From Bacteroidaceae bacterium (GTDB lineage: Bacteria > Bacteroidota > Bacteroidia > Bacteroidales > Bacteroidaceae): DNA of 64,000 nucleotides. The DNA lies in contig JAFSAT010000014.1 in NCBI GenBank assembly GCA_017442185.1, positions 1 to 64,000 of the forward strand. Reading direction: 5' to 3'. The notes under the pieces were generated by a model. The model searched no databases. It worked only from the letters and a program-made list of their open reading frames with translations, and was not told the origin of the DNA. Positions 5,374-60,817 of the stretch are shown in pieces; position 1 is the first letter of the stretch; each line of letters begins with the position of its first letter. Both the position numbers and the translations under genes were made by a program.

Positions 5374-5403
5374 TTTACAAACATCTTCTTAAATATAAAT
5401 ACT

Positions 5404-7584
5404 ATGGCAAGAAAGATTTTTATTGCTCTGCTTCTTGCTTTTGCAAGTTCGCTGCTTTTTGCGCAGACAAACGGCAAAATACGTGTTGCCTGTATCGGTA
5501 ACAGTGTAACCTATGGCTATACGCATAAGAATCCCGCAGAAACTTCATACCCCTCGCGTCTGCAAGTGCTGCTGGGCGACAATTACGAGGTGCGTAATTT
5601 CGGACATTCAGGCTCCACGTTGCTCAATAAAGGGCACCGTCCATACACCAAGCAAAAAGTCTATTCCGATGCTTTGGCCTTTGCTCCCGATCTTGCCATA
5701 ATACATTTGGGATTGAACGATACCGATCCACGTAACTGGCCAAATTATCGCGATGAATTTGTTACAGACTATCTGGCTCTTATAGATACGCTGCGTGCAA
5801 TAAATCCCGATGTCAAAATATGGATTTGTCGTATGACACCTATTTTCAATCATCACCATCGTTTTAAATCGGGAACAAGAGATTGGTATTGGCAGATACA
5901 GGATGCCATAGAGCATCAGGTGTTGCCGTTGGCGGCGCCGCAATTGCAGGATGCAGCCGACAGTCGCGATAAACTACCACAGGTTCAGTTGATTGATCTT
6001 CAGGCGCCGCTTTATAATCGTCCCGACCTGCTTCACGATTTTCTACACCCCAATCCTCAGGGTGCGCAGATTATTGCGAACACTGTATATTCGGCAATAA
6101 CAGGTGACCATGGAGGGTTGTCGATGCCGGCTATATATACCGATAATATGGTGATACAGCGTGATAAAGGGTTCACCGTATGTGGAAAAGCCAATGCCTG
6201 TGCAAAGGTCAAGGTGCGTCTGGGCAAACAGAAACGTACCGAATATGCCTCTGCCGATGGCTCATGGAGCTGCAAATTTAACCCTTTGAAGGCAGATGGC
6301 AAAGAGTATACACTCACTGTGGAGAGTGATGGCAAGGTGCTCGAATTTAAGAATATCGTGGTGGGCGAGGTGTGGCTTTGCTCGGGACAATCGAATATGG
6401 CATGGATGCTCAAACAAGCCAAAGATGCCGCAGTGCACATAAAAGCCGCCCCCTCAAAATCGGTACGTGTCTACGACATGAAGCCGCGTGTATACACCGA
6501 CAACTACGCTTGGCCCGAGGAAGAACTTGTGAATGTCAATGAACACAATTATTACAAACCGGCTTCGTGGCAGCAGCTGACAGCCGAAAATGCAGCAGAC
6601 TTCTCGGCTGTGGCTTATCACTTCGGAGCTATGCTTGCCGACTCTTTGCAGATTCCCATAGGTCTTATATGCAATGCCGTCGGGGGCACAACCACCGAGG
6701 CTTTCATAGATAGAAAGACATTGGAATTCGACCCGGTGCTTGTGGATATTCTCTATCATTGGCGCGAGAATGACATGGTGCAGGATTGGGTTCGAGGTCG
6801 CGCCTCAAAAAATGTTGAATTAAGCAAGAATCCTTTGCAGCGTCACCCATACGAACCTGCCTATCTCTTTGAAACAGCGATAGAACCGCTCACCTGCTAC
6901 CCCTTAAGAGGTTTCATCTGGTACCAAGGTGAGTCCAATGCACACAATGTAGAACTTTACGACTATATGTTTCCTGTGTTGGTGGATAGCTGGCGCCGTG
7001 CTTGGAATGATAAACAACGCACAGATGGGGATTTGCCATTCTGCTATGTGCAATTGTCGAGCATAAACCGTCCGTCGTGGCCGCACTTCCGCGATATGCA
7101 ACGCCTGCACTCTCTTGATATAGCCGATTGTTATATGGCAGTGTCGAGCGACAAAGGACATCCGACCGATGTGCATCCGACTGATAAACAGCCTGTCGGA
7201 GAGCGTTTGGCCCGTCAGGCTCTGCATAATGTCTATGGCTTTGAACACGTAGTACCCTGTGGCCCTGTGCCTGTGAGCGCCAAGAGCAGCAAAGGGGCAA
7301 TTACCATTACATTTGAGAATGCCGATGGAATGTGTGCCGCCGACGGCTCCGAGATAAGACTTTTTGAAGTTGCATCGGAGGTGGGGGTATACTATCCTGC
7401 CGACGAGGTGAGGATTGACGGCAATAGAGTTGTGGTAAGTTCAAAGAATGTGAAAAATCCCCTTCGTGTACGTTACGCATGGCAGCCGTATACAACAGCC
7501 AATCTTGTAAATGGCGAGGGATTGCCGGCAAGCACATTCTCCTTGGAACTGAATGTCGAGACAGGAGAGTTAAACAGCTTCTAA
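5404..7584 (+). CDS. Secreted double esterase: GDSL-like SGNH plus sialate O-acetylesterase domains
   Basis: A 726-residue exported protein with a signal peptide ending near residue 20 (LLFAQ). It carries two SGNH-fold hydrolase domains. The first, about residues 25-235, has the block I nucleophile in IGNSVTYG (Ser34), the Asn block in HLGLNDTDP and the catalytic Asp/His in DFLHPNPQGAQ. The second, about 245-720, matches the sialate 9-O-acetylesterase family, with nucleophile motif CSGQSNMAW near residue 330, WYQGESN, and a distal HPTDKQPVGE carrying Asp/His. Both domains look catalytically complete. Such enzymes remove acetyl groups from sialic acid or plant polysaccharides; pairing two in one chain suggests different acetyl positions. 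It is 27 bases upstream of a GH123-like gene, which points to host-type glycans. The last codons coincide with a copy of the R1 repeat arm. Confidence 0.85.
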   Translation: MARKIFIALLLAFASSLLFAQTNGKIRVACIGNSVTYGYTHKNPAETSYPSRLQVLLGDNYEVRNFGHSGSTLLNKGHRPYTKQKVYSDALAFAPDLAIIHLGLNDTDPRNWPNYRDEFVTDYLALIDTLRAINPDVKIWICRMTPIFNHHHRFKSGTRDWYWQIQDAIEHQVLPLAAPQLQDAADSRDKLPQVQLIDLQAPLYNRPDLLHDFLHPNPQGAQIIANTVYSAITGDHGGLSMPAIYTDNMVIQRDKGFTVCGKANACAKVKVRLGKQKRTEYASADGSWSCKFNPLKADGKEYTLTVESDGKVLEFKNIVVGEVWLCSGQSNMAWMLKQAKDAAVHIKAAPSKSVRVYDMKPRVYTDNYAWPEEELVNVNEHNYYKPASWQQLTAENAADFSAVAYHFGAMLADSLQIPIGLICNAVGGTTTEAFIDRKTLEFDPVLVDILYHWRENDMVQDWVRGRASKNVELSKNPLQRHPYEPAYLFETAIEPLTCYPLRGFIWYQGESNAHNVELYDYMFPVLVDSWRRAWNDKQRTDGDLPFCYVQLSSINRPSWPHFRDMQRLHSLDIADCYMAVSSDKGHPTDVHPTDKQPVGERLARQALHNVYGFEHVVPCGPVPVSAKSSKGAITITFENADGMCAADGSEIRLFEVASEVGVYYPADEVRIDGNRVVVSSKNVKNPLRVRYAWQPYTTANLVNGEGLPASTFSLELNVETGELNSF

Positions 7585-10764: not shown

Positions 10765-10817
10765 AAAATCATCGGGGCTTCGTCAATATTAAAATCTGAC
10801 GAAGCCCCGATGATTTT
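10765..10817. terminator. Bidirectional terminator between convergent genes
   Basis: A perfect 21-base inverted repeat (10765-10785 and 10797-10817) with an 11-base loop, AAAA at one edge and TTTT at the other. It can terminate both the flavodiiron gene from the left and the GH95 gene from the right. Confidence 0.9.
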
Positions 10818-14565: not shown

Positions 14566-14740
14566 TTTTAAGAAGCTGTTTAAATTTATGTCCTTGGGAT
14601 TTTTAAGTTCTTTTTTAGACTGTTTTTTCATTTTTTAAGGTCGCATAGCGGGTTATGTAACCGCAAAAAGTAGCATAAAAAGCAAGTAAAATCCGCTTAT
14701 ACATAAACATAAAATTTGAAAGAAATTTAAACAGCGTTTA
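14566..14740 (-). repeat. R1 inverted-repeat element in the leader of the large GH95 gene
   Basis: In the sense of the downstream minus-strand gene, an arm GCTGTTTAAATTT (14735-14723) lies immediately after the stop codon of the upstream fucosidase. Its complement AAATTTAAACAGC, extended to AAACAGCTTCTTAAAA (to 14566), lies about 32 bases before the ATG at 14534. The arms are 13-base perfect complements enclosing about 135 bases, which contain a small hairpin near GCGGGTTATGTAACCGC. The element fills almost the whole gap between the two fucosidase genes. Same family as 23123-23260. Confidence 0.65.
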
Positions 14741-17197
14741 AAATTCCATGATTATTTTATCGCCTTTTTTGGAGGGGATTGTGTAGGTGTCGTTGCCGCA
14801 TTTTTTTATGCTTTTCTTTTTTCCGGCAACAGTGACTGTGGCGTTGTCAAGACCGGGGTAGCGCACTTTCAGTCGGCTGCCCTTGTTGTTTATTATTTCG
14901 GCCTTTGCTGCTTTGCCGTTTTTCCAAGTTATGGAGACGGTGAAGTCTCCTACGGCTTTAAGTCCGCTGATGCTTCCGTTTTTCCATACGGCCGGCAGGG
15001 CGGGCAGCAGGTGTATGGTGCCACTTTGGCTTTGCATGAGCATCTCTGATATTCCTGCGCACACTCCGAAATTTCCGTCTATCTGGAAGGGTGCATGCGA
15101 GTCCCACAGATTATAGTATATTCCGCCGGCATATTGGTTCACTCCGTATGAGGTGGAGTGTTTAAGGGCGTTGCGTATTATGCGGTGGGCGTGGTTGCCG
15201 TCGAGGGCGCGTGCCCACAGATTTACTTTCCATCCCATCGACCAACCGGTGGCTTCGTCGCCGCGCAATTTAAGGGCATTGACTGCGGGGATGAAGTATT
15301 TGCTCTCGGGGGTTATTTGGTTCAATGGATAAAGGCACATGAGGTGCGACATGTGGCGATGTGCCTTGTCGTTGCTGACATCGTAGCTTGCGTATTTCCA
15401 TTCACGAAGCAGGGTGTCGCCGGGATGTATGTCGTTTTGTGCACCCCATGCTTCCCAACTTTCGCCCTTGAATGTTTCGGTGTGCAGGCCTTGGTCGGTT
15501 TTTGCAAGGTATTCATCCAGTTGTGCAACCTGTTGTTTGCTCAGGCCGCAGGCTTTGCGTCCTAATATATCTATGGCCTCTTTTACGCTTAGGAGGTGTG
15601 TGTATACCATTTGCTGTGCATGTGCGGTGGCATCTTCTTTGGGGTGGTCGTTTTGCTCGGCCGAGTATTCATCGGGGCACACATATGTTCCATCTTTTGC
15701 TACTCGGTCGGGTATCATGCGCTCGAACCAAAATTCGGCGCAGCTCCACATTACGGGGAAGGCCTTAGCCAGAAACTCTTTGTCGAGGGTGTAGCGGTAG
15801 TGTTGCCACAGGTGTGAGCAGTACCATACGTTGGCAACAAAGTAGTTGTCGCCCCATGTGCTCATTCCGCCGAATATGTTATTTTCGGTGAAGCAGGTCC
15901 AGCCTTTTGTCTGTCCGCCACGTTTGGCGGCGCGTTTCCAATTGTCGCCATTGGCCATGGTGATGATATAGTGTAGGAACGGGTTGTGCAGTTCGCTGAG
16001 ATTGGTTGGCTCTGCCGGCCAGTAGTTCATTTGTATGTTTATGTTGGAGTGTATGTCGGAGTTCCATGGGGCGTTGGCTTGGTCGTTCCAAATGCCTTGC
16101 AGGTTGTTGGGGACATTTATACCGCGTGAACTTGATATTAGCAGGTAGCGACCGTAGGCAAAATAGAGCTGTTCAAGAAACAGTGTTTCAGGCTCTATGC
16201 CTGTTACATTCTTGTTTTTGTCGTTGTAGTTGTCTATCAGTTGCTTGGTGTTTACATGGCTTGCCGCTCCATCGAAATTCAGTTTTACACGGCTCATGTA
16301 GCCTGTGAATTCTTTTGTGTGGTTGTTGCGCAGTGTGGTGTAGCCTTTTGCGGCTGCTTCATCCACTGTTTTTTGTATTTGTTTCGCAAGTGTCGACGTT
16401 CCCGATGTGAAAGTGGGCGACGATGAGTCGTAGTCGGTGCCGGCGGCGAGCAGCAGCACTATTTCGTCGGCATTTTTTACGGTGATGCCGTTGGCATCGG
16501 CTGTCATTGTTGCATTGCTGCCCGAGGGTAGCACTCTCAGGCGGGCATTGTAGCTTACGGTGGTTAGTTTTCCGCCAAATGTGGCATTGCCGTCGGTGTA
16601 TTGCACTGTTGAGGCGTTTATGCCTTTACCGGGGATGAGCGCAAATTGCATGCTTAGCTTTCCACCGTCGGCTGTGTAGCGTATTGCTATCACATTATCG
16701 GGGGCAGATGCAAAGTATTCGCGTGAGTATACTGTGCCGCCGCTGTAATACTTAACGCCTGCGATTGCTTCCTCTATGTCAAGATAGCGTACATAGTCGG
16801 TTGCTGCGTTATAATCTTCGTATCCGATTGCACCGCTTATGTCGCGTGCTTTAATCCATCCGAAATTTTTATAACCGCCATAGTTGCCCATGTCGTTGGG
16901 GCTTCCTTCCCACAGGGTTTTTTCGTTGAATTGTATTTCGTCCTCGGCTACGCCGCCCAGAAGGCAGGCACCCAACCTGCCGTTACCAATCGGCAGTGAA
17001 TATTCCATCCACTTGTAACCGGCGTCGGTGAGTGTGGCGGGTGTGTCATACCACAGGGTCAGGGCGTTCTTTGGCGTGAAACTGTCGGCACCCGACACCT
17101 TGAAGTCTTTTGGTGCGGTATCTGCATTGTTGTTTGCCGTTAATGATAATGTCACTGTAAATAGCACAATGAATAGTGAATGGAGCCTTTTGAACAT
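14738..17197 (-). CDS. GH95-type alpha-L-fucosidase, compact form
   Basis: An 819-residue secreted GH95 enzyme with a signal peptide ending near LTANN. It lacks the N-terminal binding modules and C-terminal tail of its neighbour, so the catalytic architecture fills the chain: N-terminal beta domain (40-290), then an (alpha/alpha)6 barrel and C-terminal beta domain. Key motifs are NINIQMNYWP near residue 385, DEYSAEQ near 509 and QIDGNFGVC near 709, so the active site looks intact. It has a clear minus-strand promoter, and the R1 element separates it from the downstream paralogue. The pair probably arose by tandem duplication and may differ in location (periplasmic versus surface) or in substrate linkage. 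Confidence 0.9.
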   Translation of the reverse strand: MFKRLHSLFIVLFTVTLSLTANNNADTAPKDFKVSGADSFTPKNALTLWYDTPATLTDAGYKWMEYSLPIGNGRLGACLLGGVAEDEIQFNEKTLWEGSPNDMGNYGGYKNFGWIKARDISGAIGYEDYNAATDYVRYLDIEEAIAGVKYYSGGTVYSREYFASAPDNVIAIRYTADGGKLSMQFALIPGKGINASTVQYTDGNATFGGKLTTVSYNARLRVLPSGSNATMTADANGITVKNADEIVLLLAAGTDYDSSSPTFTSGTSTLAKQIQKTVDEAAAKGYTTLRNNHTKEFTGYMSRVKLNFDGAASHVNTKQLIDNYNDKNKNVTGIEPETLFLEQLYFAYGRYLLISSSRGINVPNNLQGIWNDQANAPWNSDIHSNINIQMNYWPAEPTNLSELHNPFLHYIITMANGDNWKRAAKRGGQTKGWTCFTENNIFGGMSTWGDNYFVANVWYCSHLWQHYRYTLDKEFLAKAFPVMWSCAEFWFERMIPDRVAKDGTYVCPDEYSAEQNDHPKEDATAHAQQMVYTHLLSVKEAIDILGRKACGLSKQQVAQLDEYLAKTDQGLHTETFKGESWEAWGAQNDIHPGDTLLREWKYASYDVSNDKAHRHMSHLMCLYPLNQITPESKYFIPAVNALKLRGDEATGWSMGWKVNLWARALDGNHAHRIIRNALKHSTSYGVNQYAGGIYYNLWDSHAPFQIDGNFGVCAGISEMLMQSQSGTIHLLPALPAVWKNGSISGLKAVGDFTVSITWKNGKAAKAEIINNKGSRLKVRYPGLDNATVTVAGKKKSIKKCGNDTYTIPSKKGDKIIMEF

Positions 17198-18804: not shown

Positions 18805-19105
18805 GAAAAAGACGTGGGATTTCAACTTTGCTTATCCCAGTCTTTAGGCTCTCGCATTGCCCTATCCGAAAGATAAGCAACGCTGCCTGCCCACGTCGTG
18901 ATATATTATACTAACAACTGCACCGGTCGAACTGTTTCCATAGTTCGACGGCTGAAGATATAATACACACTTTGTGGACGTTGCGTTGCCGTATCTTCTC
19001 GGATTAAACTTGCGAGATTTAAAGACTTGAAGATAACGACGGTGAACGTCCTTTCCAAAAAAACAGAATCAATCGACCACCACCGATGGTGTGTTTCGAT
19101 GTACT
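18805..19105 (-). ncRNA. Probable structured RNA of about 300 nt (small RNA or leader with attenuator)
   Basis: The minus strand from a TATATTTG promoter box (19119-19112) to a T-run at 18810-18805 has no good reading frame but extensive pairing. The 3' end is an intrinsic-terminator-like hairpin: 18897-18890 (GACGTGGG) pairs with 18818-18811 (CCCACGTC), extended inside by TTGCTTATC (18880-18872, 18836-18828), then TTTTTC. The same segment (18896-18868) can instead pair with 18998-18974 through GAAGATA, GCAACGC and GTCCAC, a mutually exclusive long hairpin. A further hairpin is GTCGAACT...AGTTCGAC (about 18950-18927). It could be a stand-alone RNA such as a 6S-type RNA, or the leader of 17447-18739, whose start is only 65 bases beyond the terminator. 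It has no recognisable tmRNA or RNase P signature. Confidence 0.5.
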
Positions 19106-19121
19106 CTGATGCAAATATAAT

Positions 19122-19375
19122 AACAAACGAGCGAAATAAAATAAAACTTGCTTTATTATTTTGCAGCGAGTGAAGAAAATATTCGAGGTTTACCTCAAAT
19201 ATAATAACAAATGAGCGAAATAAAATAAATCTTGCTTTATTATTTTGCAGCGAGTGCCGACTAATATTCGAGATTTATCTCAAATAAAGCAACAAACGAG
19301 CTAAATAAAATAAAGTTTACTCTTTTTTTACATCGAATCCTGAAAAATCGAGAATAGTGGAGATTCACCTTAAAT
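19122..19375 (-). repeat. Tandem R2 repeats, period about 84 bases, promoter-bearing on the minus strand
   Basis: Two clear units begin at 19122 and 19206 and a degraded third at 19291. Each reads AACAAACGAGCGAAATAAAA...TTTTGCAGCGAGTG on the plus strand. On the minus strand the block is CACTCGCTGCAAAATAATAAAGCAAG...TTTCGCTCGTTTGTTATTATATTTG, ending in a -7-like TATATTTG at the first two unit boundaries. Single copies of the same block occur at 54406-54467 and 56131-56188. There are no distinct spacers or constant-length repeats, so it is not CRISPR. It lies directly upstream of the putative RNA 18805-19105. The remaining 19376-19446 stretch is AT-rich with nothing evident. Confidence 0.75.
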
Positions 19376-23077: not shown

Positions 23078-23085
23078 TATCTTCG
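23078..23085 (+). promoter_or_regulatory. -7 box upstream of the ABC exporter
   Basis: TATCTTCG followed by C matches the -7 consensus. No clear TTG lies 20 bases upstream, so the -33 element is weak. It is followed about 38 bases later by the R1 element, which would therefore be transcribed in the leader. Confidence 0.5.
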
Positions 23086-23122: not shown

Positions 23123-23260
23123 TTTAAGAAGCTGTTTAGTTTATATCGTTTGCTTCTATATAGGGCAAAAACCGACTGTTTTTTGAATATAAGACAGTCG
23201 CAAAAAAGATGAAACAGCCTCATGAATAAAGTTTTAATGGAAATATAAACAGCTTCTAAT
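23123..23260 (+). repeat. R1 inverted-repeat leader element (type example)
   Basis: The left arm TTTAAGAAGCTGTTTAGTTTATAT begins at 23123; the right arm ATATAAACAGCTTCTAAT ends at 23260, four bases before the ATG of the ABC exporter. The arms share a 12-base perfect complement. Between them is an inner hairpin, CGACTGT...ACAGTCG. The element lies wholly between a TATCTTCG promoter box and the start codon, so the transcript could fold into a closed stem that presents or hides the start site. Confidence 0.7.
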
Positions 23261-32462: not shown

Positions 32463-32500
32463 TAATTTTGCATCCGAATGTGTAAGAAGCTGTTTGATTT
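32463..32500 (+). promoter_or_regulatory. -7 box and R1 half-element in the pdxJ leader
   Basis: TAATTTTG at 32463-32470 is the likely -7 box. It is followed 13 bases later by an R1 left arm, AAGAAGCTGTTTGATTTTT, from 32484. No matching right arm occurs before the ATG at 32545, so this is a solo arm. Confidence 0.5.
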
Positions 32501-32544
32501 TTATTGTAAATTAAAACCGCATTACTTAAATACATCTATGAATT

Positions 32545-38701: not shown

Positions 38702-38740
38702 CACCCCGTATCTCTTACTAAGAGATATTGGTTTTTGTAT
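38702..38740 (+). repeat. 39-base direct repeat, copy 1 (contains a palindrome)
   Basis: CACCCCGTATCTCTTACTAA... through GGTTTTTGTAT; identical to copy 2 at 38894-38932 except for one base. The centre ATCTCTTACTAAGAGAT is a near-perfect 17-base palindrome followed by a T-run. This copy lies 37 bases after recG and could act as its terminator. The AT-rich DNA between the copies (38741-38893) has no gene. Confidence 0.8.
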
Positions 38741-38893: not shown

Positions 38894-38932
38894 CACCCCG
38901 TATCTCTTAGTAAGAGATATTGGTTTTTGTAT
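38894..38932 (+). repeat. 39-base direct repeat, copy 2 (start of a 5' leader)
   Basis: Differs from copy 1 by a single base in the palindrome centre (ATCTCTTAGTAAGAGAT). It begins immediately after the -7 box and ends 46 bases before the ATG at 38979. In the transcript the palindrome followed by GGTTTTTG could be an attenuator or a protein-binding hairpin. Confidence 0.75.
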
Positions 38933-38978: not shown

Positions 38979-41027
38979 ATGAGAAAATTTACAATTTTTT
39001 TGATGCTTGTTGTATTCAGTATATGGCAGGCAAATGCACAGACTGTGGGTGATTGCGGAAATCTAAAGTGGAATTTCGAGGATGGTGTGCTCACTATCAG
39101 TGGCGAGGGTGAAATACCCGATTGTTCATCGGTGGTAAATCAGCCTTGGGGCTCTTTGGCTGTTAAAAGCGTTGTTGTTGAAGAGGGTGTAACTTATATA
39201 GGTAAATATGCGTTTGCATCTTTGGAGCAGTTGGAGAGTGTCACTATTGCAGCAACAGTAGAGCGTATCGCAAATTATGCGTTCCGCGACCTTTCGTCGT
39301 TGCGCGAGGTGCGATTCGCAGGTAAAGAGGCATTACCCACGATGAACGCTTCCAACGTGTTTCGCGGAACATCGCGTGGTGATATAACTGCCTATTGCGA
39401 TTATAAGATGTATGAACAATACGATGCCTCATCTTTTGGGTTCGGAACTTATATCCTCACAGGTGAGCACACAGTATGGAGTGTAACTTCTTATTATGAA
39501 TATAACACCTCTGATGCAACCCTTGTTGTGAACGCAGAGGGTTCATTGGATAGCCAATATCTGCAAAAAGTAATTTTTGCCGCAACAGGAGTAGATTCTA
39601 ACGAGTCGGAATTATATAATGTTGAAACATTGATAATAGGTGAAGGTGTTACAGATATTAAATCCAGTGCATTTATATATTGCGAGTATCTGATGCACAT
39701 TCAGTTGCCGTCGACATTGACGCAAATCGGAGAATACGTTTTTGCAGGAGCCAAAGATTTACATTCCGTAAGTTTTGCTTCGGCAGTGGCGCCCTATTTT
39801 TATCCTACTGCTTTTGTTGAGGGCCTGTCGATAGGCATAGCAGTTCCGGCAGGCAGCGAAGCATCTTACAATAATGAGAATTACGGAAAATATTTCGACC
39901 TTTCGTCTCTCTCAACCGAATGTGGTGCTCAAGGTGATAATCTCACATACTCATATTCTAATGGTACACTTACCATTGCAGGTACAGGCGACATGAAGAA
40001 TTTTGAATATGGAAAAGCTCCTTGGAATGCCTACGCAGCAGACATCGTTACCGTTAATCTGCCCGAGGGGCTTACCGGCATCGGCGACTATGCCTTTTGC
40101 AATTGTAACAATCTCAGCAGTATAAATATAGCTGAAACAGAGGTCGGAGTAATCGGAACGTATGCGTTTTATCACTGCTCGGCGTTAAAGGAGATTGAAC
40201 TGCCCGCTACACTTCACCAGATCAATGAAAATGCTTTTCGCAGCTCTTATATTGTGACAAATGAGGGTAGAATGATTTTAAATTCTCTGCCTGAGAATGT
40301 TCCCGATGGTGCTTACACTGTGCTTAACATTGTAGATGGCGGTGATGCAAATGCGTCGCTTCCCGAGAGTGCATACGGCCTTGAATTTGACGAAGCTAAT
40401 TATAAGCGCACATTTGCCGCCGGAGGCATGGGCACAATTGTTATTCCGTTTAACTACAATGTGACACCGGTGAACGGTCTCTATTTTTATGAACTTTCGG
40501 CAATCGAGGGGTCGTATATCGTGTTCAACCAGACATATAACCCCGAGCCTAACAAGCCTTATCTGTGGCAGAACAACACAGAGCATACGTTTACCGAGCT
40601 TACATCTTATGGCAACGTAAGCATAGCAGCTCCTTCGACAGATGCACAGGCAGGAGAGTGGAGCCTTGTGGGCAGCTATCAAGAAAAGGTAATCACGGGC
40701 GATGAACTTGAGAGCAGCTATGCTCTTACGGCCGACGGAAAATTGATGAATTCTACCACAAGCCTCAGAGTAAAGCCCTATCGTGCTTATTTCAGCGGCC
40801 CTGCATACGGTAATCTCTCTGCATCTCACATACAGTCGGCAGGTCGCACCATAGGTGTGCGCCTTGTGGATGTAGATGGCGAGACTACCACCATCGAAAA
40901 TGTCATCATCGAAAATGATGGCTCCCTTAACTTTGATAATGCGGTGTACGACCTGAGCGGTCGTCGCGTGGAGAATCCATCCAACGGCATTTTCATTGTT
41001 AACGGTAAAAAAAACTATATAAAGTAA
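38979..41027 (+). CDS. BspA-like leucine-rich-repeat surface protein
   Basis: A 682-residue secreted protein with a signal peptide ending in ANAQT. Two blocks of LRR_5-type repeats of the BspA kind are visible at about residues 55-130 and 205-290, and again at 320-420, with motifs such as VTYIGKYAFASLEQLESVTI and GDYAFCNCNNLSSINI. Each block is preceded by a short WNFEDGVLTISGEGEIP-like unit. The remainder (430-640) is beta-rich and unassigned. The C-terminus (YDLSGRRVENPSNGIFIVNG) is the Bacteroidales sorting-type tail. BspA-like proteins mediate adhesion to host proteins or other bacteria. It has its own promoter and repeat-containing leader and is followed by a 53-residue peptide gene. Confidence 0.85.
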   Translation: MRKFTIFLMLVVFSIWQANAQTVGDCGNLKWNFEDGVLTISGEGEIPDCSSVVNQPWGSLAVKSVVVEEGVTYIGKYAFASLEQLESVTIAATVERIANYAFRDLSSLREVRFAGKEALPTMNASNVFRGTSRGDITAYCDYKMYEQYDASSFGFGTYILTGEHTVWSVTSYYEYNTSDATLVVNAEGSLDSQYLQKVIFAATGVDSNESELYNVETLIIGEGVTDIKSSAFIYCEYLMHIQLPSTLTQIGEYVFAGAKDLHSVSFASAVAPYFYPTAFVEGLSIGIAVPAGSEASYNNENYGKYFDLSSLSTECGAQGDNLTYSYSNGTLTIAGTGDMKNFEYGKAPWNAYAADIVTVNLPEGLTGIGDYAFCNCNNLSSINIAETEVGVIGTYAFYHCSALKEIELPATLHQINENAFRSSYIVTNEGRMILNSLPENVPDGAYTVLNIVDGGDANASLPESAYGLEFDEANYKRTFAAGGMGTIVIPFNYNVTPVNGLYFYELSAIEGSYIVFNQTYNPEPNKPYLWQNNTEHTFTELTSYGNVSIAAPSTDAQAGEWSLVGSYQEKVITGDELESSYALTADGKLMNSTTSLRVKPYRAYFSGPAYGNLSASHIQSAGRTIGVRLVDVDGETTTIENVIIENDGSLNFDNAVYDLSGRRVENPSNGIFIVNGKKNYIK

Positions 41028-43734: not shown

Positions 43735-46422
43735 ATGAACATACGTATATTATATATAACATTATTGCTTGTAATGTTGCCCTTTATGTGTGTAAAATCA
43801 CAGGAGGACAGGGTAGTTACAGGAAGCGTGAGCATAGATACCGCCGACCCGGGTTTGGAGGTAGAGGTTATGAAAGACATTGTCATATATACATTCATAG
43901 AGAAAAAAGATGTCGATGAGGCGATAGAAATACTTAAGACAAAGCCCGAAGAAAAGATTAATTTTTATTTTGACATTGCCAAGCCCGACCCTCGCATAAT
44001 GACAATAGGAGAATTTAAACTGACAATGCCACCCTCGGGAGGGTATCTGCTTGTGTGGTGTCCCGAGTATACAAAATGTCCGTATGCTCGGTATGAGCAT
44101 AGAACTGTTTCATCAGGTATGAATATAGTCTTAAAATACGATGATGAAAAATTTGAACGTACGATAACCAAGGAAGGCGACACAGTGAGGCAAGTAAAAA
44201 ACGTAACCATCACAGCCGAGAGAATAGGTGCGAAAGAAAGCGTATCGGCAAGTGCCGAAGAGGGTGGAGTGATGGAGAGTGAGATGATACTTAAAATACC
44301 ATACAGGGTGAAACCTAATATGAGAGTGGCTGTTCAGCCTATGTGGTACGACAGAGTGGATATTGGCAATGAGAACAGCGACACGTTGTTTTCTTACGGA
44401 AAAATAGTATATCGCGACAGAAACGAGTATAAAACAACATTGACACGTCTGATGGACTTTGACCTTATGCGCGATACTATCTACTCCATGGCAAGTGACA
44501 GCACCACACGCTATGTAAAAGAAGTTGATGGGCATAAAATATTCTCCAACATACAATTCTCGCCAAAGAACGATACAATATTTGTGCATGTGATAGATAC
44601 AATGTCGGGCTACGACCCCGACTATTCACACCCTTATCCCTTTGGCGTGATTGTGGCAGTTGGCGATTATAATACAATCATATACAAAGAGACTGATAAA
44701 GATGACGGTGAAAGGCGTAACCCTCTGAAATTTCTTGACTTTACATTTAAAGAATTCCTTCCCGACAAAAATAAGTTTAAAGAAAAGATGGAAGCCCGCA
44801 GGTATGAAGCGCCCGGCGAACTTAAACTGAATTTCCAGCAAGGAAGGGCTGTTATTGTCCCCAACGATTCATCGAGCAGGGCGCAGTTGGATAATCTGCG
44901 TGCTACGTTTGCAGGTATAAAGGCCGACAGCCGCAGTTCGTTGGTGCGTGTCACAGTCTATGGAATGGCGTCTCCCGAAGGTAATCTCTCGCACAATAAG
45001 GAGCTTGCTCGCAAGCGTGCGCAATATGCAATGGAGCAGATAAAGACATTCACAGAGCGCAGTGTGCAGATGTATGAGCCTCAGGTTGCACCATGGAGCG
45101 CAGTGGTAGAGCTTTTGATTGCCGACGGACTTACCGAAGAGGCCGACGAAATTAACGCGATAATAGCCGCACATCCCGGTGATATAATGGCACAAGGTCG
45201 ACGAATTGCCGCGCTCGGATGCTACGAAACTATTAAAGAGCGCTATCTGCCCATGCTCAGAACCGTAAGATACAACTACAGGGTGAATATCGAAGCGCAG
45301 CTACCTCCCGACATAGTGTTGCAACGATACAGAGAGGGTAACTTTGACTCTTTTAAGCGAGGCGAATATTGGACGCTCTTTAACTTTATTGAAGATAAAA
45401 ACGAACTTGAAGGAGTGGTTAAGCATGCGCATGATGTAACAAGAAACACATATAACTCCGATTCGGTATATTGCAAGGGGTATTGGCCTTATGCCGCCTG
45501 TCTTTTGGCATGCTGTTATATTGCAAGAGACACAGTAGACCTTGATGTGCTCTCTCCTTTCCTCGACCTTAATGTTGTAAACGACACAGTATCACGTTTG
45601 CGTTTCCAAAGAAACAGCTCCATAACTACAAACCGCATAGTTGAATATATCAATTATCCCGAGGTTGCTGCCAACCAGCTGATTATGGTGCTGAAACAGC
45701 CAAATTCGCCCTTGCGCCGGAAAATACCTGTTCTTGAAGCTATAATGAAAGGGCAAGGGCTTGAGTATGACACGCTTGCCGCCATATCCAAATGTATGCG
45801 CGGAGGGTATAAACCCGGAAGCGTCTCAAATGAAGATGAGGCTCAGAGAATACGCAATATAGTATCGTCAACTTCGGTGACAAACGATGTTATAATAAAC
45901 TTGGCGATGGACGAGCCGGGTGACACCGACACAAAATATCTTGATGCGGCTGAGGTAAAATCGGCCATGCTGCCCGATAATGCCGTCTCCGATTATCTGA
46001 AGGCTGTAATAAAATTCCGGAAGAATGATAATTTAGCCGCCGACAGCCTTCTTGCCGAGAGCTTTGTAAAAGACCCAAAGATGATTGCAATTGCATACAA
46101 CGACAAAGACCTTATCTCTGCCGATGGCAGCTACAAAGTGGTGGCAGGTGGATTGCGTTTTTGGAATACAATAATGTCCGGCAAGGTTGAAGGAAAAGAC
46201 GACCATCCATATACTTGGTGGGCAAAAGCCTTTGCCGAACTGAATAAGGGCAGCTACGCCGATGTTGAACTTGCAAAAGAGTATATGTATCGCTGCTTCG
46301 AGCTTGATAAACGTTATTTGAGAATATTAAGTGTCTCAATCAAGAGCGATAAGGAAATAGTAAATAATGCATTATTAACTGAAAGGTTGAGAGAAATCAG
46401 AAGTGAATATGACAGAGAATAA
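43735..46422 (+). CDS. Large OmpA-like protein related to DUF3868 fimbria-locus proteins
   Basis: An 895-residue exported protein with a signal peptide ending in VKSQE. Residues 25-370 are beta-rich with two Cys near residue 110 (WCPEYTKCPY). Residues about 375-480 form an OmpA C-terminal-like domain, with VRVTVYGMASPEGNLSHNKE and LARKRAQYAMEQIK, which in true OmpA binds peptidoglycan. Residues 480-895 are helical with repeat character (AVIKFRKNDNLAADSLLAES, WWAKAFAELNKGSYADVELA), resembling TPR-type scaffolds. This order of beta domain, OmpA-like domain and helical repeats recalls DUF3868 proteins that accompany fimbriae, but the chain is nearly twice as long. Its end overlaps the next gene by 14 bases. 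Confidence 0.7.
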   Translation: MNIRILYITLLLVMLPFMCVKSQEDRVVTGSVSIDTADPGLEVEVMKDIVIYTFIEKKDVDEAIEILKTKPEEKINFYFDIAKPDPRIMTIGEFKLTMPPSGGYLLVWCPEYTKCPYARYEHRTVSSGMNIVLKYDDEKFERTITKEGDTVRQVKNVTITAERIGAKESVSASAEEGGVMESEMILKIPYRVKPNMRVAVQPMWYDRVDIGNENSDTLFSYGKIVYRDRNEYKTTLTRLMDFDLMRDTIYSMASDSTTRYVKEVDGHKIFSNIQFSPKNDTIFVHVIDTMSGYDPDYSHPYPFGVIVAVGDYNTIIYKETDKDDGERRNPLKFLDFTFKEFLPDKNKFKEKMEARRYEAPGELKLNFQQGRAVIVPNDSSSRAQLDNLRATFAGIKADSRSSLVRVTVYGMASPEGNLSHNKELARKRAQYAMEQIKTFTERSVQMYEPQVAPWSAVVELLIADGLTEEADEINAIIAAHPGDIMAQGRRIAALGCYETIKERYLPMLRTVRYNYRVNIEAQLPPDIVLQRYREGNFDSFKRGEYWTLFNFIEDKNELEGVVKHAHDVTRNTYNSDSVYCKGYWPYAACLLACCYIARDTVDLDVLSPFLDLNVVNDTVSRLRFQRNSSITTNRIVEYINYPEVAANQLIMVLKQPNSPLRRKIPVLEAIMKGQGLEYDTLAAISKCMRGGYKPGSVSNEDEAQRIRNIVSSTSVTNDVIINLAMDEPGDTDTKYLDAAEVKSAMLPDNAVSDYLKAVIKFRKNDNLAADSLLAESFVKDPKMIAIAYNDKDLISADGSYKVVAGGLRFWNTIMSGKVEGKDDHPYTWWAKAFAELNKGSYADVELAKEYMYRCFELDKRYLRILSVSIKSDKEIVNNALLTERLREIRSEYDRE

Positions 46423-49400
46423 CATGACAATATATAAAAATCTGATAATAAGGGTGCTGCTTGTCTGTGGGTTTATATTCTGTATGAATGTGAATACTGC
46501 AGTCGCTGCTGCTTGGGCCGATAAAGATACCACTGCAACAAATATTTCCAAGGATGCTGCAAATGGAATTTTTGTTGCCGGCAGCTATGGTAAAAATGCC
46601 ATAGATTATATAATGTCCAAGCGCTACCGTCACCCATCTGCAGTGGAACATTCAAGCAGAGGATTTTTGTCGCATCTGTTTTTAGGCGGCTCATTCTCTT
46701 TCGACTTTCTTGCGCCTCGCGGAGATTATACATATCACCCGGGAATAAGCTGGGGCATCAACGTGGGCAAAGAACTTAGTGCAACACACTCTCTTGCTCT
46801 CCAATATTTTTATGGTGGTAACAATGATAAGGACGACCGTGCAAAATTCAAGCGACAGGCCTTGCAATTGAGCCATTATTTCAATTTCACAAGATATTAT
46901 CTGGGATATGACCCCTCGCGTTTGTTTGAATTGTCATCTATGTTGGGTGTGGGAGTGCAGCGAGGCGAAATTTGGGACAAAAGGTCTGATTCTCCTTATC
47001 TCTCATTAGGTATGAAAGCCTCATTCAGAATGGGCAATAATGTTCACCTTGTGGTTGAACCTCATGTTGCATTGGCAGGAGAGGGGTACAGCGGAGAGGA
47101 AGAGGGGTATTGGTATTCCGGCTATAATGCTTCGTATGGAGTAGGAACATCAATAAACTATACCTTTGAAAATGAGCTGTCTAAGGCCGGGCATGTCGAA
47201 AAAATGCCTTTCTCTCGCAACTATATGTTCCTGACAACCGGGTTGCAAAGTCTGAAGTCCGATATATCTTTTTCTCGAACATTAGGGCCTATGCTCTCTA
47301 TCGGCTATGGATATTGGCTTTCTCCTCTTGTTGGGGTGCAGGTTTCCGGCGGTTACTCCTCAGGTGGCTGGACTTCGTATGCGGTAGATGCAGCGGATGC
47401 TGCTGCATACACATTGTATCCTAAGACTCAATATGTGTTCGGACGCATTGAGCCTGTTTTCAATATTTTCTCCTCTTTTGATGGTATTAACAAAAGCGGA
47501 AGAGGGGTTTCGTTGAGCTTGATGGGTGGTTATGAATTTGGTCGCCTGTGGAAATACAGACTCTCTCTTGATAATCAGACGGTTGATAGTTATAATGGTT
47601 TTACCGGTGCATTGCGTTTAAAATATCATAGCGTCGAAGGAAAGACCTTATTTATTGAGCCGCGCATAACGTTTGCTGAATATGGAGCATTGTATGGAGA
47701 AGAGTATGTAAGCACCGAAAAATCCCGTATCGACTCCCGTTGGAGCCTTGCATTAGGAATGGAGTATGGTCTTCAGCGCCCCCGCGGTTCTTCCGATAAG
47801 TCCTCAGTACCCTCGGACGAATTTACGCCCCGTTTCGCCGTCTCCCTCTCCGGCGGCCCCGTTTACATCTTCAACCGCGACATATATTCCGGCGGAGGTT
47901 ACCTGGACGGCGGTCTCAGCCTCGGCTTGGAGTACCAACCCTTCCGTCTCTTCGGTGTTCGCGGTCTCTTCGACTACTCCCTTTACAGCTTCAGCAGCAT
48001 AGAAAACTACCGTCTTACCGGCGTCGACGGCCTCTCCACAGTGCATAAAGGGCTTTGGCACAAGCAGTATCACACGCTCAGCGGTATATTCGATTTGAAG
48101 TTCGACTTAAGCAACGCCCTCTTCGGCTACGACGCCTCCCGTCGTTGGCACAGCTCCCTCTACATGGGTTTGGTTGTCAGCCGTCACCGCCGCATAAGCT
48201 CCGAGATAGACGAAAGCGAGGTCGTTCCCTCGGGCAGCCGTTTGAAGCTGCTTCGTGAGCCCTCGGAGGAGAACTTCCCCGGCTTCCACACCTCATTCTC
48301 CACCCGTTACAACCTCAGCCGCCGTTTGAGCCTGTTCGGCGAGGTCGACCTCCGCATGTACGGCAACGAATACATCAGCGAACAGAGTGTCGACTATCGT
48401 CCTGTCCGCACCATGGCTTTCCGCGGCGGAATCGACTACGACCTAAATTTCCCCTACATAGTAAAATCGTTCCGCAGCCCCCTTCCTTTCTCTCGCGACT
48501 ACCTTTTCATCTCCACCGGTTTTCAAAGTCTGAATTCCGACATCCGCTTCTCTCGCACCCTTGGCCCTTCCGTAAATATCGGTTACGGCCATTGGTTCAC
48601 CCGACGTTTCGGTGTTCAGCTTAGCGGCGGCTACTCCTCCGGCGGTTGGATATCCTACTCCGTAGCTTCAGGTAAAGAAGATGTTCCCCCCTACACCCTC
48701 TATCCCAAGTCCCAATACGGGTACGGTCGCATCGAAGGCGTCGTTAACGTATACAGCAGCCGCAGCGTCTCCGACGGTTTTAGCGGCGGCTTGTCACTGA
48801 ATGTTATGGGCGGTTACGAGATTGGCAGTCTGTGGAAATACCGCACCGACATAAGCAACCAGATAAACGCCGATTATGCCGGCTTCACCGGCGGCTTGCG
48901 TTTGCGTTACCATGGCACCGAGGGCAAGAACCTCTTCTTTGAGCCACGTGTGACGTTTGCCAATTACTCCGGCGCCCGCAGTGCCTCCAGACAAGACCCC
49001 TCCCGAATCGACTCCCGTTGGAGCCTTGCATTAGGAATGGAGTATGGTCTTCAGCGTCCCCGCGGTTCTTCCGATAAGTCTTCAGTACCATCGGATGAGT
49101 TTGTTCCCCGTTTCGCCGTCTCCCTCTCCGGCGGCCCCGTTTACATCTTCAACCGCGACATATATTCCGGCGGAGGTTACCTGGACGGCGGTCTCAGCCT
49201 CGGCGTCGAGTACCAACCCTTCCGTCTCTTCGGTGTTCGCGGTCTCTTCGACTACTCCCTTTACAGCTTCAGCAGCATAGATAACTACCGTCTTACCGGC
49301 GTCGACGGCCTCTCCACAGTTCATAAAGGCCTTTGGCACAAGCAATATCACACCCTCAGCGGTATATTCGATTTGAAGTTCGACTTAAGCAACGCCCTCT

Positions 49401-49729
49401 TCGGCTACGACGCCTCCCGTCGTTGGCACAGCTCCCTCTACATGGGTTTGGTTGTCAGCCGTCACCGCCGGATAAGCTCCGAGATAGACGAAAGCGAGGT
49501 AGTTCCCTCGGGCAGCCGTTTGAAGCTGCTTCGTGAACCCTCCGAGGAGAACTTCCCCGGCTTTCACACCTCATTCTCCACCCGTTACAACCTCAGCCGC
49601 CGTTTGAGCCTGTTCGGCGAGGTCGACCTCCGCATGTACGGCAACGAATACATCAGCGAACTGAGTGTCGACTATCGTCCCGTTCGCACCATGGCTTTCC
49701 GCGGCGGAATATCTTTTGACTTAAAGTAA
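46409..49729 (+). CDS. Giant outer-membrane multi-barrel protein with internal duplication
   Basis: About 1106 residues; ATG 46409 overlaps the previous gene by 14 bases, and ATG 46424 is an alternative that also leaves a signal peptide ending near TAVAAAW. An N-terminal OmpA-type beta-barrel covers about residues 85-265. Two tandem units of 426 residues follow, starting with RNYMFLTTGLQSLKSDISF and RDYLFISTGFQSLNSDIRF. Each unit reads as a pair of small barrels (LGPMLSIGYGYW..., then FTPRFAVSLSGGPVYIFNRD...). In the DNA, 47731-48432 and 49009-49710 are near-identical. From about 47,760 on, codons are strongly C-ending, unlike the AT-rich first third. It looks like a mosaic product of duplication or gene conversion. 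Function unknown. Confidence 0.7.
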   Translation: MTENNMTIYKNLIIRVLLVCGFIFCMNVNTAVAAAWADKDTTATNISKDAANGIFVAGSYGKNAIDYIMSKRYRHPSAVEHSSRGFLSHLFLGGSFSFDFLAPRGDYTYHPGISWGINVGKELSATHSLALQYFYGGNNDKDDRAKFKRQALQLSHYFNFTRYYLGYDPSRLFELSSMLGVGVQRGEIWDKRSDSPYLSLGMKASFRMGNNVHLVVEPHVALAGEGYSGEEEGYWYSGYNASYGVGTSINYTFENELSKAGHVEKMPFSRNYMFLTTGLQSLKSDISFSRTLGPMLSIGYGYWLSPLVGVQVSGGYSSGGWTSYAVDAADAAAYTLYPKTQYVFGRIEPVFNIFSSFDGINKSGRGVSLSLMGGYEFGRLWKYRLSLDNQTVDSYNGFTGALRLKYHSVEGKTLFIEPRITFAEYGALYGEEYVSTEKSRIDSRWSLALGMEYGLQRPRGSSDKSSVPSDEFTPRFAVSLSGGPVYIFNRDIYSGGGYLDGGLSLGLEYQPFRLFGVRGLFDYSLYSFSSIENYRLTGVDGLSTVHKGLWHKQYHTLSGIFDLKFDLSNALFGYDASRRWHSSLYMGLVVSRHRRISSEIDESEVVPSGSRLKLLREPSEENFPGFHTSFSTRYNLSRRLSLFGEVDLRMYGNEYISEQSVDYRPVRTMAFRGGIDYDLNFPYIVKSFRSPLPFSRDYLFISTGFQSLNSDIRFSRTLGPSVNIGYGHWFTRRFGVQLSGGYSSGGWISYSVASGKEDVPPYTLYPKSQYGYGRIEGVVNVYSSRSVSDGFSGGLSLNVMGGYEIGSLWKYRTDISNQINADYAGFTGGLRLRYHGTEGKNLFFEPRVTFANYSGARSASRQDPSRIDSRWSLALGMEYGLQRPRGSSDKSSVPSDEFVPRFAVSLSGGPVYIFNRDIYSGGGYLDGGLSLGVEYQPFRLFGVRGLFDYSLYSFSSIDNYRLTGVDGLSTVHKGLWHKQYHTLSGIFDLKFDLSNALFGYDASRRWHSSLYMGLVVSRHRRISSEIDESEVVPSGSRLKLLREPSEENFPGFHTSFSTRYNLSRRLSLFGEVDLRMYGNEYISELSVDYRPVRTMAFRGGISFDLK
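47731..48432 (+). repeat. Intragenic 702-base duplication, copy A
   Basis: Aligned by hand to 49009-49710 at an exact offset of 1278 bases (426 codons) without gaps; I count about 23 differences. The copies end where the coding sequences diverge into CGACTACGAC versus ATCTTTTGAC. Both encode the barrel beginning RFAVSLSGGPVYIFNRD. Confidence 0.9.
49009..49710 (+). repeat. Intragenic 702-base duplication, copy B
   Basis: Second copy of 47731-48432, at the 3' end of the gene. The preceding 500 bases of the unit (48490-49008) align to 47212-47730 only at protein level, so identity is confined to the last 234 codons, as expected after gene conversion. Confidence 0.9.
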
Positions 49730-53222: not shown

Positions 53223-53265
53223 TTATATATATGACTAAACTGTGTCGCCAAATTAAAACGGCTTC

Positions 53266-54293: not shown

Positions 54294-54405
54294 ATATTTT
54301 TTTAATAAAACCCGTATTGTTTGTTTCTCCATTTTTGAATATAAAAAATTGGCGATATAAATTCAAACTGCTTCTAAATAATCGGCTGCTTGTTGAAGAT
54401 AGTCC

Positions 54406-54467
54406 TTCACTCGCTGCAAAATAATAAAGCAAGCTTTATTTTATTTCGCTCGTTTGTTGTATCTTTG
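54406..54467 (+). repeat. R2 repeat copy ending in a promoter box
   Basis: TTCACTCGCTGCAAAATAAT... through TTTCGCTCGTTTGTTG and TATCTTTG (54460-54467). This is the same block, in the same orientation relative to the -7 box, as the minus-strand copies at 19122-19290. It lies 29 bases before the methyltransferase ATG. A solo R1 right arm (AAACTGCTTCTAAAT, about 54366-54380) precedes it. Confidence 0.7.
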
Positions 54468-54496
54468 CAGTAAGATTTGTTCTTTTGACGGTATTT

Positions 54497-56062: not shown

Positions 56063-56340
56063 TTAAGAAACTGTTTGAATTTTACAGGAAAAGTTTTTTA
56101 TATTTGAAATATATCTCGAATATAAGCCTGCACTCGCTGAAAATAATAAAGCAAGTTTTATTTATTTCGCTCGTTTGCATTATATTTGTGACTTAGTTTC
56201 GGCTTCTTTGAGTAAGTTTCGGCATCTTTTCTTTGTTATTTTTTGACAATGGCCCGCTATTCCTTGCAATATAACAAAGGGAATCTACTCTGAAAAGCTC
56301 TCAAATAATTCCGAAATAAAATTTAAACAGCATCTAAGAA
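56061..56340 (+). repeat. R1 inverted-repeat pair enclosing an R2 copy upstream of purD
   Basis: The left arm AATTAAGAAACTGTTTGAAT starts directly after the methyltransferase stop. The right arm AAAATTTAAACAGCATCTAAG ends about 27 bases before the purD ATG. The arms are imperfect complements 240 bases apart. Between them lies the R2 block (56131-56188). The 56189-56317 stretch is otherwise featureless AT-rich DNA. This locus shows the two families nested. Confidence 0.6.
56131..56188 (+). repeat. R2 repeat copy ending in a promoter box, upstream of purD
   Basis: CACTCGCTGAAAATAATAAA... TTTCGCTCGTTTGCAT and TATATTTG (56181-56188). Probably supplies the purD promoter, giving a leader of about 170 bases. 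Confidence 0.65.
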
Positions 56341-60722: not shown

Positions 60723-60817
60723 TTTAAGAAGTTGTTTGCAATTCTGTTAAATTTGTTTTTGTGAGGAAGTTTTATGTTTCTCATCCGTTTTTATATCCAA
60801 AAATAACAGTTTCTAAA
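60723..60817 (+). repeat. R1 inverted-repeat leader element upstream of the CotH-domain gene
   Basis: Left arm TTTAAGAAGTTGTTTGC from 60723 and right arm AAATAACAGTTTCTAAA ending at 60817, imperfect complements about 65 bases apart. It begins about 20 bases after the TATATTTG box and lies 100 bases before the ATG at 60917. The remaining 60591-60722 and 60818-60916 stretches are AT-rich with no gene; a pyrimidine-rich TTTCTTTATCTCTTTCTTTC run (about 60610) follows the ATPase gene. Confidence 0.6.

What the first reader, a model, noticed from the sequence alone, without database searches (positions are those of the whole stretch)
23123..23260. R1: a dispersed inverted-repeat family sitting in 5' leaders
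An inverted pair AAGAAGCTGTTT ... AAACAGCTTCTT recurs with enclosed lengths of about 65 to 240 bases at 14566-14740, 23123-23260, 56061-56340 and 60723-60817. Solo or partial arms occur near 5379 (AAACATCTTCTTAAAT), 7570, 19486, 25763, 31256, 32484, 38687, 41304, 53248, 54366 and 59930. Where a promoter box can be placed the left arm follows it by about 13-40 bases, and the right arm often ends just before ATG. This is a shared leader architecture more than scattered debris. It could be a miniature element, a conserved leader fold controlling translation, or a binding site for an RNA-binding protein. I know of no named family that matches.
Basis: partly seen in the sequence, partly recalled or inferred. 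Interest (0 to 1): 0.78.

Follow-up and report, generated by a model that had tools for sequence, protein, structure and literature searches.

The report
IS5-type miniature transposon family (MITE)
The repeated mirror-image arms are the two ends of a small non-coding transposon that a larger IS5-type jumping gene probably moves; it is scattered between genes in an uncultured gut bacterium and its relatives, and is not a special gene-leader switch.

Summary
The repeat is real, but it is a mobile element rather than a leader architecture. The arms are terminal inverted repeats (GAAGCTGTTTAAATTT) of a miniature element, 179-192 bp in 58 of 60 intact copies, flanked by a 3-bp TAA/TTA target duplication. 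Evidence: 78 exact arms genome-wide against 3 for the reversed pattern; equal target triplets in 47 of 57 intact copies, against 25.5 by shuffling; an exact empty site in close relatives; 0 to 128 exact ends per genome within one genus. An IS5-family transposase gene in a sister species starts behind the identical terminal repeat. Copies sit between genes without preference for leaders: in tandem gaps 33 arms lie nearer the 5' end and 34 nearer the 3' end. At 23123-23260, eight relatives have a promoter-like box and the gene but no arm. The interior folds into a hairpin with compensatory changes, but an unbiased wobble count shows no RNA-strand selection in the genus. Of 11 solo arms, 4 are clear, 2 borderline, 5 noise.

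The parts
23128..23256 (+). focal MITE copy, 129 bp, decayed; left part matches the subfamily A profile
   Evidence: TIR scores 18.4/24.3; target triplets TAA/TAA at 23125-23127 and 23257-23259; nhmmer A model 1-58, E 1.2e-5
23078..23085 (+). promoter-like -7 box TATCTTCG upstream of the element
   Evidence: the same box lies 34-68 nt before the orthologous start codon in 6 relatives, and TAACTTTG/TAACTTCG in 2 more, none with an arm; that such a box is a -7 element is recalled knowledge of Bacteroidota promoters
14572..14738 (+). MITE copy, subfamily B, 167 bp
   Evidence: nhmmer B model 1-187, E 1.1e-28; target triplets TAA/TAA at 14569-14571 and 14739-14741
56067..56334 (-). MITE copy, subfamily C, interrupted by a second repeat (56123-56195)
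   Evidence: nhmmer C model 1-155 over 56334-56181, E 5.5e-36; TIR 25.6/24.1; flanks TAA/TAA read; second repeat
60728..60745 (+). left TIR of a decayed copy; right end not found
   Evidence: score 16.6, right side 8.0 at most
7564..7581 (-). solo TIR next to the stop codon of the ORF 5404-7584
   Evidence: score 21.1
   Evidence: score 19.0
32486..32503 (+). solo TIR
   Evidence: score 25.2
   Evidence: score 19.3
53248..53265 (-). solo TIR in a convergent gap
   Evidence: score 22.9, context
54329..54374 (-). end fragment of a subfamily A copy
   Evidence: nhmmer A model 1-48, E 0.001; score 22.3

Best explanation
The arms are the terminal inverted repeats of a non-autonomous miniature transposon (MITE). 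An IS5-family DDE transposase supplied in trans, or formerly present, recognises the ends (GAAGCTGTTTAAATTT), cuts the element out and inserts it at a TNA site (TAA or TTA), duplicating those 3 bp. Insertions that survive lie almost only between genes, upstream or downstream alike; old copies decay to partial pairs and solo ends. Shown: ends, target duplication, empty site, copy-number variation, and ends shared with an IS5-family transposase gene. Inferred: that this transposase moves the MITE, the cut-and-insert steps, and that most copies are neutral to the host.
For: Exact empty site: in G029 the element and one TAA interrupt a site that is continuous in G019, G035 and G030 (86-90% identity across the joined junction); 5 further relatives show no element there either. 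Equal target triplets in 47 of 57 intact copies; shuffled mean 25.5, maximum 39 in 1000 shuffles. Exact 16-bp end in 28 of 37 genus genomes, 0 to 128 copies each, and in 0 of 24 genomes of other families. End-to-end elements in 19 of 44 genus genomes. 99 of 102 arms intergenic, where 15.5% of bases are. Partner: in same-genus G020 an IS5-type transposase ORF (183 aa, 3' truncated) starts 115 bp inside an exact terminal repeat preceded by TTA. The first 35 bp of that end match one end of subfamily C copies at 34 of 35 (two copies in G357, another family) and 26-32 of 35 (six copies in the genus). A 551-bp TIR-flanked element in another family holds a remnant of an IS5 transposase (NF033580, E 4.7e-10, under the curated cut-off). 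IS5 elements of 899 and 915 bp in two other families have related ends (GARRYTGTTT...) and TAA/TAA triplets.
Against: No partner transposase was found in this genome: 0 matches to the IS5 query, and the single DDE_Tnp_1 hit is another element without these ends. Only 2 of 44 genus genomes match, both broken. Subfamilies A and B share with the G020 end little beyond the 16-bp repeat (22-26 of 35 in the five copies compared), so the link of the partner to them is weaker. Ten of 57 intact copies have unequal triplets; one of them has flanks lying in two different places in a relative, which points to recombination between copies. In this genome's own, mostly decayed pairs only 9 of 20 have equal triplets. 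The 551-bp element has unequal triplets, and the 915-bp element could instead start at a further copy of its left end.
Confidence: 0.95

Rival explanations
1. A conserved 5' leader fold that controls translation of the downstream gene.
For: At 23123-23260, 32484 and 56326 an arm lies in the gap before a start codon. Arms can pair in RNA. The interior hairpin has compensatory changes: 43 cells against 11.0 in shuffles.
Against: No 5' preference (33 near 5', 34 near 3' in tandem gaps), convergent gaps used as expected (9 against 10.6), no orientation bias (9 against 7). Relatives have a promoter-like box and the gene without an arm. In the alignment used for covariation the arms never vary (its members were picked for exact ends).
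Confidence: 0.03
2. A transposon-borne RNA or single-strand hairpin with its own selected function (for example processing of the transcripts it lands in, or a step in its mobility), of which the transposon ends are only the carrier.
For: The two interior helices keep 97.3% and 98.7% of cells paired while their sequence changes; subfamilies A, B, C and an element from another family (L238) fold into a similar bulged hairpin; one strand folds more stably in 62 of 65 elements (for D and E that strand was named after the fold was seen). The four D elements lean to G.T over A.C (28:12).
Against: In the genus G.T and A.C mismatches show no G.T excess (A 121:177, B 30:35, C 19:24), so no RNA-strand selection is visible. 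Templated repair between palindrome arms gives compensatory changes without selection (recalled knowledge). No orientation bias relative to genes. The shuffles do not correct for relatedness.
Confidence: 0.12
3. Binding sites of a regulator or RNA-binding protein (a regulon).
For: Conserved 16-bp arm with solo copies.
Against: Pairs bound a shared interior of 179-192 bp, carry target duplications and have an empty site; copy number ranges from 0 to 128 within the genus; also in 3' and convergent gaps.
Confidence: 0.02

Closest known systems
IS5-family insertion sequences (NCBIfam NF033580; Pfam DUF4096 + DDE_Tnp_1)
   Same: Related ends (GARRYTGTTT...) and a 3-bp TAA duplication in L251 and L257; the exact 16-bp end lies in front of the transposase gene in G020.
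   Different: The window elements are far too short for a transposase gene; the nearest complete insertion sequences found are in other families.
Porphyromonas gingivalis MITEs with IS5-like ends (BrickBuilt, MITE464/PgRS; PMC4596501, passages read)
   Same: Intergenic miniature elements in Bacteroidales whose ends resemble those of IS5 elements (GAGACTGTTGCA and similar in that paper's table).
   Different: Different end sequence, internal tandem repeats, another host; BrickBuilt duplications are reported there to differ in length, against a fixed 3 bp here.
Tourist / PIF-Harbinger MITEs of eukaryotes (search listing with abstract starts, otherwise recalled)
   Same: 3-bp target duplication (TWA, recalled) and foldback interior; kinship with bacterial IS5 is recalled knowledge.
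   Different: Eukaryotic hosts; not a member.
Cardinium MITECca01 (PMC9769881, passages read)
   Same: Short non-autonomous element sharing ends with a parental IS; Cardinium is a Bacteroidota endosymbiont (recalled).
   Different: Derived from an IS982 element, about 240 bp.

Membership tests
MITE (non-autonomous DNA element) | short, with terminal inverted repeats | tested here: met
   60 distinct intact elements with exact 16-bp ends (selected by that pattern); 58 of 60 are 179-192 bp
MITE (non-autonomous DNA element) | target-site duplication | tested here: met
   equal 3-bp triplets in 47 of 57 intact copies; 25.5 by shuffle; 9 of 20 in this genome's own pairs
MITE (non-autonomous DNA element) | many copies, presence/absence variation, empty site | tested here: met
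MITE (non-autonomous DNA element) | no transposase gene inside | tested here: inconclusive
   elements of about 190 bp cannot hold one; no dedicated ORF or family search of the elements was run
IS5-family MITE | ends shared with an IS5 element of the same host group | tested here: met
   G020 contig C110: exact 16-bp end with IS5 transposase ORF 115 bp inside; 34 of 35 bp shared with two subfamily C copies of G357, 26-32 of 35 with six in the genus, 22-26 of 35 with five A and B copies; only one, 3'-truncated, such IS copy in 44 genus genomes
IS5-family MITE | mobilised by that transposase | not testable with these tools
   needs a transposition assay
structured RNA / riboregulator | match to a described RNA family | tested here: not met
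   no Rfam 15 match at gathering score in the window; the intact elements of relatives were not scanned
structured RNA / riboregulator | strand-specific pairing (G.U kept, A.C not) | tested here: not met
   A 121:177, B 30:35, C 19:24; only the 4 D elements (28:12) and the single E element (3:1) lean the other way
5' leader element | located between promoters and start codons | tested here: not met
   33 nearer 5' against 34 nearer 3' in tandem gaps; 9 of 99 intergenic arms in convergent gaps, 10.6 expected

The most novel reading that the evidence does not exclude
The interior of this MITE is a selected hairpin kept by compensatory change across several Bacteroidales families, with a constant apical plan (GGC[AG]C-stem-loop-stem-GTAAC[CT]G in most A and B copies and in element L238, read by eye). 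It would act as RNA or single-stranded DNA in the element's own spread or in processing of the transcripts that carry it.
Probability: 0.12. Interest if true: 0.6.

Novelty: new member of a known kind. Interest (0 to 1): 0.3.

Why it matters
It names a conspicuous repeat in the genomes of an uncultured Bacteroidales genus, mostly sampled from ruminant hindguts, and removes a false lead (a leader riboregulator). It supplies ends, target rule and a candidate transposase, so mobility can be tested. The copies also mark insertions at stop codons and at least one rearrangement joint, which is useful for strain comparison.

Tried and rejected
Leader or riboregulator reading: rejected on placement, orientation and empty sites. 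RNA-strand selection of the interior: suggested by a biased count from the table (41 G.U against 3 A.C, outside the small last helix) and by strand energies, but not borne out by the unbiased mismatch count in subfamilies A-C. DDE_Tnp_1 transposases in 37 genus genomes (24 hits): two loci carried these ends; L077 held a separate 189-bp MITE, and L088 proved to be the partner only after the IS5 protein search. Viral contigs: no intact element. Literature, open papers only: neither the 12-mer arm nor four 11-15-mer pieces of the end gave a paper whose title concerns such a repeat (listings only); topic searches gave no family with these ends in their listings; in the 2024 review of prokaryotic MITEs the terms 'Bacteroid' and 'Prevotella' do not occur, 'Porphyromonas' does (passages). 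Subscription papers and ISfinder were not searched. A first attempt at an exact empty site with L187 failed, because its two flanks lie in different places in a relative. Target triplets of this genome's own pairs (9 of 20 equal) were too decayed to decide alone.

Rows dropped: 3 of 60 intact elements at contig edges were left out of the duplication count; elements over 205 bp and those over 93% identical to one kept were left out of alignment A1. The genes used come from my own hexamer gene finder, not from an annotation; starts were extended upstream by rule. The automatic pairing mis-paired the copy at 56067-56334.

Full report
What was checked. The inverted arms exist and exceed chance: 11 matches to AAGAAGCTGTTT within one mismatch in the window, 0.32 expected, and 78 exact copies in the 2.36-Mb genome against 3 for the reversed pattern. 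A weight matrix refined from the exact copies puts 102 arms in 462,241 bp (9 in a reversed control) and 14 in the window (1 in the control). From this I extrapolate roughly 470 arms in the genome. Three of four named pairs and four of eleven named solo arms are clear; two solos are borderline and five are not above noise; the fourth pair has only a left arm.

Anatomy. The consensus of the arms is T[A/T]A followed by GAAGCTGTTTAAATTT. This is what a direct TAA duplication on both sides of a GAAGC...GCTTC element gives. In sister genomes, 58 of 60 distinct intact elements (picked for exact 16-bp ends) are 179-192 bp; the other two, 256 and 268 bp, carry inserts. Of the 60, 57 have both flanks readable and 47 of those carry equal 3-bp triplets, nearly always TAA or TTA; shuffling right flanks gives 25.5 on average and never more than 39 in 1000 shuffles. 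In this genome's own pairs, mostly decayed, 9 of 20 are equal. Three interior subfamilies (A, B, C) occur in the genus. In the window, 14572-14738 is subfamily B, 23128-23256 is A-like and decayed, 56067-56334 is C with a second repeat inside it.

Mobility. For the G029 copy in L056, three close relatives (G019, G035, G030) show the continuous site with a single TAA where G029 has the element between two TAAs; five further relatives, this genome among them, show no element there, though their sequence beyond the TAA/TGA differs. That TAA is the stop codon of the open frame upstream, as read from the alignment. At the focal locus, eight relatives (L095-L101, L111) share the upstream region by eye and have a promoter-like box (TATCTTCG in six, TAACTTTG or TAACTTCG in two) 34-68 nt before the start codon, and the best arm score in the 330 nt upstream is 7.6 or less against 24.3 in the window; the other ten loci printed score 6.9 or less. 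Copy number varies from 0 to 128 exact ends per genome, present in 28 of 37 genus genomes and in 0 of 24 genomes of other families in that sample. In a wider sample the end with its TWA is found in 9 of 392 other genomes of the order, and several of these hold elements of about 160-190 bp with such ends.

Partner transposase. A 551-bp element with these ends, but unequal triplets, in G380 contains a remnant of an IS5-family transposase (NCBIfam NF033580, E 4.7e-10, below its cut-off). A protein search found related transposases in 11 of 247 genomes. Two of these, 899 bp in G233 and 915 bp in G172, look like complete insertion sequences with related ends and TAA/TAA triplets (in G172 a second left end lies further out), and their transposases pass the NF033580, DUF4096 and DDE_Tnp_1 cut-offs. 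In the genus itself 2 of 44 genomes match. One, G020, has the ORF 115 bp inside an exact GAAGCTGTTTAAATTT end. The first 35 bp of that end match one end of subfamily C at 34 of 35 in two copies of G357, which belongs to another family, and at 26-32 of 35 in six genus copies; the five A and B copies compared share 22-26, hardly more than the 16-bp repeat. The 3' part of the G020 gene is missing. No partner is found in the window's own genome, so its copies may be fossils or depend on a gene missing from the assembly.

Placement. With genes predicted by a simple hexamer model, 99 of 102 arms are intergenic although intergenic DNA is 15.5% of the sample. Within it, tandem, divergent and convergent gaps hold 67, 23 and 9 arms against 63.3, 25.1 and 10.6 expected; in tandem gaps 33 arms are nearer the 5' end and 34 nearer the 3' end. 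Copies with interior sequence in tandem gaps point with the genes 9 times and against them 7 times. Whether promoter boxes precede left arms at a fixed distance was not tested as a statistic.

Interior fold. The elements folded form a long bulged hairpin. On 19 A and B elements the pairs hold in 98.4% of cells, with 43 cells changed on both sides against 11.0 in shuffles, a control that does not correct for relatedness. The arms themselves never vary in that set, which is expected because exact ends were required. If the fold were kept as RNA of one strand, G.U should exceed A.C; over pairs from both strands the counts are 121:177, 30:35 and 19:24 for A, B and C, so this is not seen; four elements from another family give 28:12 and one element gives 3:1. 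One strand is nevertheless more stable in 62 of 65 elements. I read the fold as a palindromic transposon interior, with a selected hairpin as the bolder alternative.

Verdict. A new family of IS5-type MITEs: a known kind of element, with no match in Rfam at gathering score in the window and none seen in the open papers searched. The host is an uncultured Bacteroidales genus; the nearest named relatives of the focal gene are 'Bacteroidaceae bacterium' assemblies, mostly from ruminant hindguts.

Noticed in passing
19104-19343 (three tandem units, - strand), 54399-54474, 56123-56195: A second repeat family: about 85-bp units (TCTCGAAGATAAG..CACTCGCTGCAAAATAATAAAGCAAG..CGCTCGTTTGTT..TATCTTTG) ending in a Bacteroidota-type -7 box (recalled), single or in tandem at 84-85 bp. 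27 hits in 462 kb, 0 in the reversed control; 13 of 17 arrays point at a same-strand gene; 23 exact cores in this genome and none in the other 43 genus genomes held. It looks like a lineage-specific multiplying promoter.
   Followed up: partly
56067-56334: The second repeat sits inside a subfamily C MITE copy; two longer MITE copies of relatives (L068, L069) carry inserts that look similar by eye.
   Followed up: partly
L187 (G066:C2), element 1501-1689: A MITE copy with unequal target triplets whose left and right flanks match different contigs in a close relative, as expected of recombination between copies.
   Followed up: partly
L056 603-791; window 7564-7584: The TAA target coincides with a gene's stop codon, so an insertion there leaves a stop codon intact.
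   Followed up: no
38702-38740 and 38894-38932: Direct repeat of 39 nt, 97% identical, starts 192 bp apart, before the ORF 38979-41027.
   Followed up: no
47723-48022 and 49001-49300: 300-nt direct repeat, 96% identical, within one large ORF (46403-49729).
   Followed up: no
10765-10817: 21-bp inverted repeat, 100% complementary, 11-nt loop, between two convergent ORFs; probably a terminator.
   Followed up: no
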